From assembly GCF_004362865.1 (NCBI RefSeq), contig NZ_SNYI01000001.1, forward strand, positions 806,001 to 870,000: 64,000 bases of DNA. Reading direction: 5' to 3'. The notes beneath the pieces were generated by a model that saw only the letters and a list, made by a program, of their open reading frames with translations, was not told where the DNA came from and did no database searches. Origin of the DNA: Zeaxanthinibacter enoshimensis (GTDB lineage: Bacteria > Bacteroidota > Bacteroidia > Flavobacteriales > Flavobacteriaceae). Position numbers and translations under genes: made by a program. Numbering within the stretch: position 1 is the first letter of the stretch; every line of letters begins with the position of its first letter. Positions 41,777 through 42,396 of the stretch are shown in pieces.

Positions 41777-41807
41777 TTTGATTGTTGTTCAAAATGTATT
41801 TTCTTTG
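41777..41807 (+). promoter_or_regulatory. Probable ancestral tRNA-Ala promoter, now ahead of the broken copy
   Basis: TTTG at 41777-41780, 19-base spacer, TTTCTTTG at 41800-41807 (two bases off TAnnTTTG). Predicted start near 41814, 10 bases before the tRNA-like sequence, a normal tRNA leader length. Confidence 0.45.
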
Positions 41808-41823
41808 CCCTTCCTAAACAGAT

Positions 41824-41897
41824 GGGGGATTAGCTCAGCTGGCTACCCGCCCGAACGTACCGTCCGGTACGGGCGGGGAGCGCAAAAAAGCATGGCA
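41824..41897 (+). pseudogene. Degenerate tRNA-Ala(GGC) 5' half
   Basis: Acceptor 5' strand, D arm, and anticodon through A37 of tRNA-Ala are recognisable: GGGGGATTAGCTCAGCTGGC at the start, GAGCGC at 41878-41883 and GCATGGCA at 41890-41897. It is interrupted by a 32-base palindrome in the D loop, TT is replaced by six A, and the 3' half is missing. Cannot form a tRNA. Confidence 0.8.
41846..41877. repeat. 32-base nested palindrome in the broken tRNA D loop
   Basis: Outer stem CCCGCCC / GGGCGGG, an unpaired GAAC, inner stem GTACCG / CGGTAC with a TC turn. Far richer in G+C than its surroundings. It splits the tRNA copy exactly between CTA and GAGC. Looks like a small mobile palindrome or a hairpin signal; no other copy was noticed in the window. 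Confidence 0.75.
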
Positions 41898-41898
41898 G

Positions 41899-42147
41899 AT
41901 GTGCTTTACTTACGTTCTTTACAGTTCTGAATTTAAAAAGTACTATGTTGGTATTTCCAATGACGTGGAAAAGCGGTTAGCGATTCACAATAGTGGTAAG
42001 ATCAAAAGTACTAAACACTTTATACCCTGGAGGGTGGTTCATGTAGAGCACTTTGGTTCTAAACAGGAAGCCAGGACCAGGGAAAAATACCTGAAATCTG
42101 CAGCAGGCAGAAGATGGCGAAAACAAAATATTGAAATGGGGGATTAG
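41899..42147 (+). CDS. GIY-YIG nuclease family protein
   Basis: 82 residues from ATG 41899 (MCFTYVLYSSEFKKYYVG). GIY corresponds to Y-V-L and YIG to Y-V-G; the conserved Arg follows in DVEKRLAIHN and the catalytic-type Glu in TREKYLKSA, and KSTKHFIPW is typical of the small stand-alone GIY-YIG family abundant in Bacteroidota. The last codons (ATG GGG GAT TAG) are the first bases of the downstream tRNA-Ala, so the gene borrows its stop from the tRNA and overlaps it by 10 bases. The start lies one base after the anticodon-loop homology of the left tRNA copy. Whether it still cuts DNA is unknown. Confidence 0.85.
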   Translation: MCFTYVLYSSEFKKYYVGISNDVEKRLAIHNSGKIKSTKHFIPWRVVHVEHFGSKQEARTREKYLKSAAGRRWRKQNIEMGD

Positions 42148-42211
42148 CTCAGCTGGCTAGAGCGCTTGCATGGCATGCAAGAGGTCACCGGTTCGACTCC
42201 GGTATTCTCCA
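42138..42211 (+). tRNA. tRNA-Ala (anticodon GGC)
   Basis: Complete cloverleaf: acceptor GGGGGAT / ATTCTCC with the G3-U70 pair that identifies alanine tRNAs, D stem GCTC/GAGC, anticodon stem CTTGC/GCAAG around ATGGCAT (GGC), variable AGGTC, T arm ACCGG-TTCGACT-CCGGT, discriminator A. CCA is not encoded. Transcription must come through the GIY-YIG gene or from within it. Confidence 0.95.
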
Positions 42212-42213
42212 CA

Positions 42214-42243
42214 AAACCCTTCCCTTAACGGAAGGGTTTTTTT
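42214..42243 (+). terminator. Intrinsic terminator after tRNA-Ala
   Basis: Stem AAACCCTTCC / GGAAGGGTTT, six-base loop, run of seven T beginning inside the stem. Confidence 0.9.
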
Positions 42244-42396
42244 ATATCTCATCTTATCGGGGGAGGCACCCTGTATATAAAGCCTCCATGCGCGCTTATT
42301 CATCCCTCCTCAGCCCGTATTTATTTAAGAAAAGTATAACGGTCACAATTTCTATCTCCAGTGCGCTCCGCTTATTTTAGAGGAAAAGCACAAAAC

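What the first reader, a model, noticed from the sequence alone, without database searches (positions are those of the whole stretch)
41800..42245. GIY-YIG gene inside a duplicated tRNA-Ala that regenerates an intact tRNA
Seen: 24 identical bases at 41822-41845 and 42136-42159, further matches of the left copy through the anticodon loop (to base 38), the nuclease ATG starting one base after that point, and the nuclease stop codon lying in the right-hand tRNA. Known: group I introns and homing nucleases favour anticodon loops, and tRNA-integrating elements usually restore the tRNA. Inferred: a minimal one-gene element that targets the anticodon loop of tRNA-Ala and brings its own 5' tRNA half. 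I do not know a described system with this layout.
Basis: partly seen in the sequence, partly recalled or inferred. Interest (0 to 1): 0.88.

Follow-up and report, generated by a model that had tools for sequence, protein, structure and literature searches.

The report
tRNA-nested GIY-YIG nuclease element
A tiny DNA-cutting-enzyme gene has inserted beside a tRNA gene while leaving one intact tRNA, and the same arrangement, with a matching DNA hairpin, recurs beside many different tRNA genes in many bacteria, suggesting an overlooked family of mobile elements.

Summary
In the window a 314-bp insert (truncated tRNA-Ala copy, 32-bp palindrome, 82-aa GIY-YIG nuclease gene) lies directly upstream of an intact tRNA-Ala(GGC). 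A same-genus genome has the same locus without it. Among GIY-YIG domains collected from family genomes, all 80 with a tRNA or tmRNA within 400 bp lie on that gene's strand (of 140). In a second set, chosen for similarity, 75 of 80 have a tRNA within 450 bp; the other five lie near contig ends. The nuclease typically sits between an intact tRNA and a partial copy of the same tRNA, on either side, often in tandem arrays. In 5'-side elements the copy most often breaks after the last D-loop base (38 of 72 at nt 22), with a hairpin at the break in 51 of 72 (random positions 181 of 3840). Nuclease lineage tracks tRNA amino acid (20 changes; shuffles at least 44) and palindrome type (3; shuffles at least 28). 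The same palindromes are dispersed in many of these genomes, Planctomycetes included. Best reading: a tRNA-gene-targeting, tRNA-restoring homing-type element with a cognate palindrome, closest to phage SegB and formally like REP-RAYT. Cutting and mobility are inferred, not shown.

The parts
41765..41821 (+). native leader/probable promoter region of the tRNA, now upstream of the truncated copy
   Evidence: bases 41765-41820 identical in the window, G002 (L047) and the empty-site genome G003 (L087); promoter function is inferred, the sigma-70 scan found none here
41824..41845 (+). left partial tRNA-Ala copy, nt 1-22
   Evidence: 22/22 identical to the intact tRNA
41846..41877 (+). 32-bp imperfect palindrome (type P1) inserted after nt 22
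   Evidence: hairpin -20.3 kcal/mol as RNA, z -3.42; dispersed in this genome
41878..41897 (+). remnant of tRNA nt 23 to about 38 (GAGCGC, A-run, GCATGGCA)
   Evidence: read; same feature in relatives
41899..42147 (+). GIY-YIG nuclease gene, 82 aa, stop codon inside the tRNA (nt 8-10)
   Evidence: PF01541 E 1.3e-16; Y5, Y16, G18, R26, H30, E62 invariant in 41 aligned relatives
42138..42212 (+). intact tRNA-Ala(GGC)
   Evidence: ARAGORN, Rfam; the genome search with this gene gave no other full-length near-identical hit, next best 92% is tRNA-Ala(TGC)
42213..42245 (+). terminator-like hairpin and T-run of the tRNA

Best explanation
It is a minimal selfish element built on a free-standing GIY-YIG endonuclease whose lineages are each dedicated to particular tRNA genes. 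The nuclease most likely cuts an unoccupied copy of its tRNA gene (inferred). Repair from an occupied donor, or repair that duplicates part of the local tRNA, leaves palindrome, nuclease gene and a tRNA fragment in place such that one intact tRNA remains (layout shown, repair route inferred). On the 5' side the order is tRNA(1-22)-palindrome-tRNA(23-36/38)-nuclease-intact tRNA; on the 3' side it is intact tRNA-nuclease-palindrome-bearing 3' tRNA part. The cognate palindrome is part of the element; it may mark or bind the nuclease or block re-cutting of the copy (inferred). The intact tRNA keeps the target, so renewed cutting or recombination between the tRNA repeats would make the observed tandem arrays (inferred). 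In 5'-side elements the tRNA would be transcribed through the nuclease gene from its old promoter, making imprecise loss costly (inferred).
For: Empty site in G003 against the occupied window. 80 of 140 domains have a tRNA/tmRNA within 400 bp, 80 of 80 on the same strand. 75 of 80 best public relatives have a tRNA within 450 bp, all same strand. tRNA amino acid on the nuclease tree: 20 changes, shuffled mean 49.5, least 44 of 300 shuffles, 70 rows; 140-row tree 32 against least 79. Both layouts occur for the same tRNA in the Leu, Asp, Pro, Asn and Arg groups, so the tRNA, not one inherited position, is what is shared. Hairpin at the copy's break in 51 of 72 against 181 of 3840 random positions. 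Palindrome type on the nuclease tree: 3 changes, least shuffle 28; within tRNA-Arg 2, least shuffle 8. Tandem units of about 300-550 bp at intact tRNAs. The experimentally studied SegB cuts inside tRNA genes and drives tandem amplification of tRNA plus segB units (PMC13096335, passages).
Against: No cleavage, transposition or homing was observed. The fold search ranks UPF0213 and SLX1 above homing I-TevI. A supported branch of 25 related GIY-YIG rows has no tRNA nearby, and 60 of 140 domains in all do not. Palindrome recognised by pattern in only 73 of 140 rows. Array polarity support is weak: proximal copy closer to the tRNA in 12 arrays, tie 9, reverse 2, and five of the 12 rest on a zero distal score, at least one of them an artefact. 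One direct empty/occupied comparison only; the occupied G002 locus is split over two contigs. Shared inheritance can also cluster labels on a tree.
Confidence: 0.6

Rival explanations
1. REP-RAYT-like system: the thing that moves is the palindrome; the nuclease acts on the palindrome hairpin and the tRNA locus is a mostly vertically inherited home of the nuclease gene.
For: Palindrome type follows the nuclease tree. Genomes with a nuclease of a type carry the matching palindrome more often: P1 6/6 against 5/143, p 3.4e-8 (4/6 against 5/143 if copies in the element are left out, p 9.1e-5); P2 9/11 against 27/138, p 4.5e-5; P3 12/17 against 28/132, p 7.6e-5 (not corrected for kinship). Nearest solved relatives after UPF0213 include the branched-DNA nuclease SLX1.
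Against: Some mismatched pairs are also associated (P3 nuclease with P2 palindrome p 0.0062, with P1 0.024; the other four p 0.14-0.2). Palindromes occur in genomes where no nuclease of the type was found, and some nucleases have the palindrome only in their own element (G021, G147). Clean palindrome insertions were not tested.
Confidence: 0.25
2. Host-serving module: the nuclease or its tRNA-like leader regulates, repairs or protects the adjacent tRNA (or is a toxin/defence part with a tRNA decoy).
For: Strict same-strand, overlapping layout with the tRNA; stop codon inside the tRNA in many members.
Against: Patchy presence (match in 88 of 149 genomes), empty site in the same genus, tandem arrays and decayed copies; only sub-threshold-looking PADLOC matches, E 0.002 and 0.0064 over 25-30 positions.
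Confidence: 0.1
3. Plain tRNA duplication and decay with a bystander nuclease.
For: In some loci copies are long or nearly full length (L079, L097, L155).
Against: The same gene family lies between the intact tRNA and the partial copy again and again, same strand, with a recurrent break and palindrome, for many different tRNAs.
Confidence: 0.03

Closest known systems
SegB, free-standing GIY-YIG homing endonuclease of T-even phages (PMC13096335 and PMC2988022, passages)
   Same: GIY-YIG nuclease gene in a tRNA region; cuts inside tRNA genes; drives tandem amplification of a tRNA-plus-nuclease unit through short homology between the tRNA 5' end and the nuclease 3' end; tRNA association across phages.
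   Different: Here bacterial chromosomes, 82-aa single-domain protein, lineage dedicated to one tRNA, partial tRNA copy that bears a cognate palindrome, intact tRNA restored. None of this was reported in the passages seen.
REP elements with RAYT tyrosine transposases (PMC3733652, passages)
   Same: Nuclease gene beside short palindromes that are also dispersed in the genome, with type-specific pairing.
   Different: Enzyme is GIY-YIG, not a tyrosine transposase; home is a tRNA gene; the palindromes do not end in the GTAG tag seen in those passages.
UPF0213 proteins (1zg2, 1ywl) and SLX1
   Same: Closest solved relatives by profile and by fold.
   Different: UPF0213 structures carry no known function in the records seen; SLX1 is a larger eukaryotic structure-specific nuclease.
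tyrT-type repeats of E. coli (recalled, no call)
   Same: Tandem repeats that each carry a tRNA 3' fragment.
   Different: No GIY-YIG gene. The 241-bp repeats in G001 (L095) resemble them.

Membership tests
Free-standing GIY-YIG homing endonuclease | GIY-YIG domain with catalytic residues | tested here: met
   PF01541 E 1.3e-16; invariant Y5, Y16, G18, R26, H30, E62 (that these are the catalytic ones is recalled); model pLDDT 94.0
Free-standing GIY-YIG homing endonuclease | Not inside a self-splicing intron or intein | tested here: met
   Rfam at E <= 1 on 41000-43200: tRNA plus three chance-level matches, no group I intron
Free-standing GIY-YIG homing endonuclease | Occupied and empty alleles at the target | tested here: met
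   Window and G002 occupied, G003 empty, G001 empty on the 5' side
Free-standing GIY-YIG homing endonuclease | Site-specific cleavage and biased inheritance | not testable with these tools
   needs enzyme and crosses
REP-RAYT system | Nuclease is a tyrosine (HUH) transposase | tested here: not met
   The domain is GIY-YIG
REP-RAYT system | Dispersed cognate palindromes | tested here: met
   pairing not exclusive
Group I intron with homing nuclease | Intron RNA interrupts the tRNA and splices out | tested here: not met
   An uninterrupted tRNA follows the gene; no intron match
tRNA-integrating element with integrase | Integrase gene in the insert | tested here: not met
   In the 314-bp insert the only ORF with a recognised domain is GIY-YIG

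The most novel reading that the evidence does not exclude
A new class of mobile element: GIY-YIG nuclease plus cognate hairpin, with tRNA genes as home sites, that copies itself next to tRNAs while keeping them intact and scatters its hairpin through the genome, a REP-RAYT counterpart made from an unrelated enzyme and exchanged between phyla (the same palindrome type beside the gene and dispersed in Bacteroidetes and Planctomycetes).
Probability: 0.35. Interest if true: 0.92.

Novelty: new variant of a known kind. Interest (0 to 1): 0.85.

Why it matters
If true, a common but apparently undescribed element uses essential tRNA genes as safe, expressed homes, explains tandem tRNA fragments and odd tRNA calls in Bacteroidetes genomes, and gives dispersed bacterial palindromes a candidate enzyme. 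It makes testable how an 80-residue nuclease can pick one tRNA gene and spare its own restored copy.

Tried and rejected
Group I intron: no Rfam match. Plain tRNA duplication: see rivals. Other structured RNAs as home: Rfam on 40 loci without an ARAGORN tRNA gave one tmRNA and one tRNA at gathering score; not every such locus was scanned. Defence system: only two weak PADLOC matches. NCBIfam: no match. PHROGs: one weak match to an endonuclease family, E 1.8e-4. Plasmids: tblastn no match. Viral contigs: 5 relatives, two with a tRNA nearby. Array polarity: weak. Literature: nine answered searches of the PMC library showed no description of this arrangement; most listings were seen only as titles and abstract starts, and subscription papers are not held.

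Rows dropped or relabelled: of 136 loci put to the own HMM, 133 had a hit; 12 repeat fetches of the same locus were removed, the window added, and domains above E 1e-6 or under 55 aa dropped, leaving 114 loci. The list was capped, so weaker matches were not fetched. Two rows called tRNA-SeC and tRNA-Stop by ARAGORN were relabelled Val. L215, L219 and L233 repeat L058, L059 and L060 and were left out but are within the 75 of 80; that set holds the best 80 of 555 and was chosen by similarity to the Ala/Arg group. 67 of 140 rows without a recognised palindrome were left out of the palindrome test. The genome groups were typed by hand; L057 and L058 were put in P1 by clade, and L072 (palindrome seen, not in the tree) was not used. 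The own-host test used only copies at least 17/22 like their own tRNA, which favours the result.

Full report
What is there. The window holds, on the + strand, a universal-stress-protein gene (40967-41764, PF00582), a conserved leader, a partial tRNA-Ala copy (nt 1-22), a 32-bp palindrome, a remnant of tRNA nt 23 to about 38, an 82-aa GIY-YIG gene, an intact tRNA-Ala(GGC) and its terminator. The nuclease stop codon is nt 8-10 of the tRNA. By the ORF coordinates the same nt 8-10 stop occurs in L061, L062, L063, L064, L072, L079, L084, L107, L111, L136 and L140, and a stop at nt 21-23 in L057, L058, L059, L060 and L073.

Empty and occupied sites. The genus has four genomes. G003 has the same Usp-tRNA-Ala-SDR order with one tRNA and no insert (L087). 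G002 has the same left copy and palindrome at one contig end and the end of the gene plus the intact tRNA at another contig's start (L047, L050). G001 lacks the insert on the 5' side but has 241-bp tandem repeats downstream that carry tRNA nt 55-77 (no GIY hit).

How widespread. In 149 family genomes 88 match the protein at E <= 0.001 (names, such as Maribacter, Arenibacter and Muricauda, point to Flavobacteriaceae). I fetched the listed places. Of 140 domains in 114 loci (three domains from G003 loci and the window included), 80 have a tRNA or tmRNA within 400 bp, 41 with it upstream and 39 downstream, all on the same strand; by locus 68 of 114. Sixty domains have none, and 25 rows without a tRNA form one supported branch. 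A scan of public genomes gave 555 relatives; of the best 80, 75 have a tRNA within 450 bp on the same strand, and the other five lie at contig ends. They include Scalindua and another planctomycete and two candidate-phylum genomes.

Anatomy. By canonical numbering, worked out by hand, nt 22 of Ala and most Arg and nt 23 of Val are A21. A hairpin of at least 6 pairs begins at the break in 51 of 72, and in 29 of the 38 at nt 22, against 181 of 3840 random positions. Asn and Pro(ggg) copies break at nt 14 with a TCCCGATAGCTATCGGGA palindrome; Pro(tgg) copies run to nt 51. For the 3' side I displayed 27 loci; by eye 22 have a palindrome within the downstream tRNA part and five (L078, L132, L133, L135, L165) do not. 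The tRNA terminator is often duplicated too (for example L115, L113, L180).

Lineage against target and palindrome. On a 114-row tree (72 columns, many forks unresolved) the tRNA amino acid of 70 rows needs 20 changes; shuffles average 49.5 and never go below 44. On a 140-row tree it needs 32 against at least 79. Three palindrome types (73 rows) need 3 changes against at least 28, and 2 against at least 8 within tRNA-Arg alone. Shuffles show clustering only; shared descent contributes.

Dispersed palindromes. P2 occurs in 36, P1 in 11 and P3 in 40 of 149 genomes, with zero reversed-pattern controls in every row. Matching nuclease and palindrome go together (6/6, 9/11 and 12/17 against 5/143, 27/138 and 28/132); two mismatched pairs are weakly associated as well. 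P1 palindromes also occur in three of five non-Bacteroidetes genomes that carry the gene, 5 to 13 forward copies each, controls zero; the other two have none. Not every genome with a nuclease has dispersed copies, and many genomes with palindromes have no nuclease of the type found.

Structure and relatives. AlphaFold model pLDDT 94.0, pTM 0.81. Best PDB matches are UPF0213 (1zg2, E 2.9e-4), then SLX1 chains (best E 4.1e-3) and the I-TevI catalytic domain (E 0.23); profile search agrees on UPF0213 and SLX1.

Reading. The gene's tie to the tRNA whichever side it lies on, the restored tRNA, the empty site and the arrays fit a free-standing homing-type nuclease aimed at tRNA genes. SegB is the tested precedent: its activity is needed for tandem amplification of tRNA-Tyr plus segB, and it cuts within tRNA genes (PMC13096335, passages; PMC2988022 places segB between tRNA-Arg and tRNA-Ile, passages). 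The cognate palindrome is what SegB lacks in those passages, and it links this system formally to REP-RAYT (PMC3733652, passages). Where the first cut falls (after A21 or in the anticodon loop) and whether the palindrome is mobilised by the nuclease remain open.

Noticed in passing
L004/L005 (same genome, outside the window): Second array in the window's own genome: two GIY-YIG genes alternating with degenerate tRNA-Asn copies that carry palindromes, downstream of tRNA-Asn.
   Followed up: partly
L003, L098, L119, L122, L125, L131, L144, L152: GIY-YIG genes within a kilobase or so downstream of tmRNA genes on the same strand, grouping on the tree; no tmRNA copy was identified.
   Followed up: partly
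L095/L096 (G001): 241-bp tandem repeats after tRNA-Ala carrying tRNA nt 55-77, without a GIY-YIG gene found.
   Followed up: partly
L009-L038: Dispersed palindromes of this genome lie in imperfect simple repeats (tgatgcggtgatacag-like) and are sometimes nested in other palindromes.
   Followed up: no
L150, L163: ARAGORN calls palindrome-bearing tRNA copies tRNA-Stop and tRNA-SeC; such calls in annotations may be artefacts of these elements.
   Followed up: partly
L058 with G077, L257: Palindromes inserted inside palindromes within the tRNA copy.
   Followed up: no
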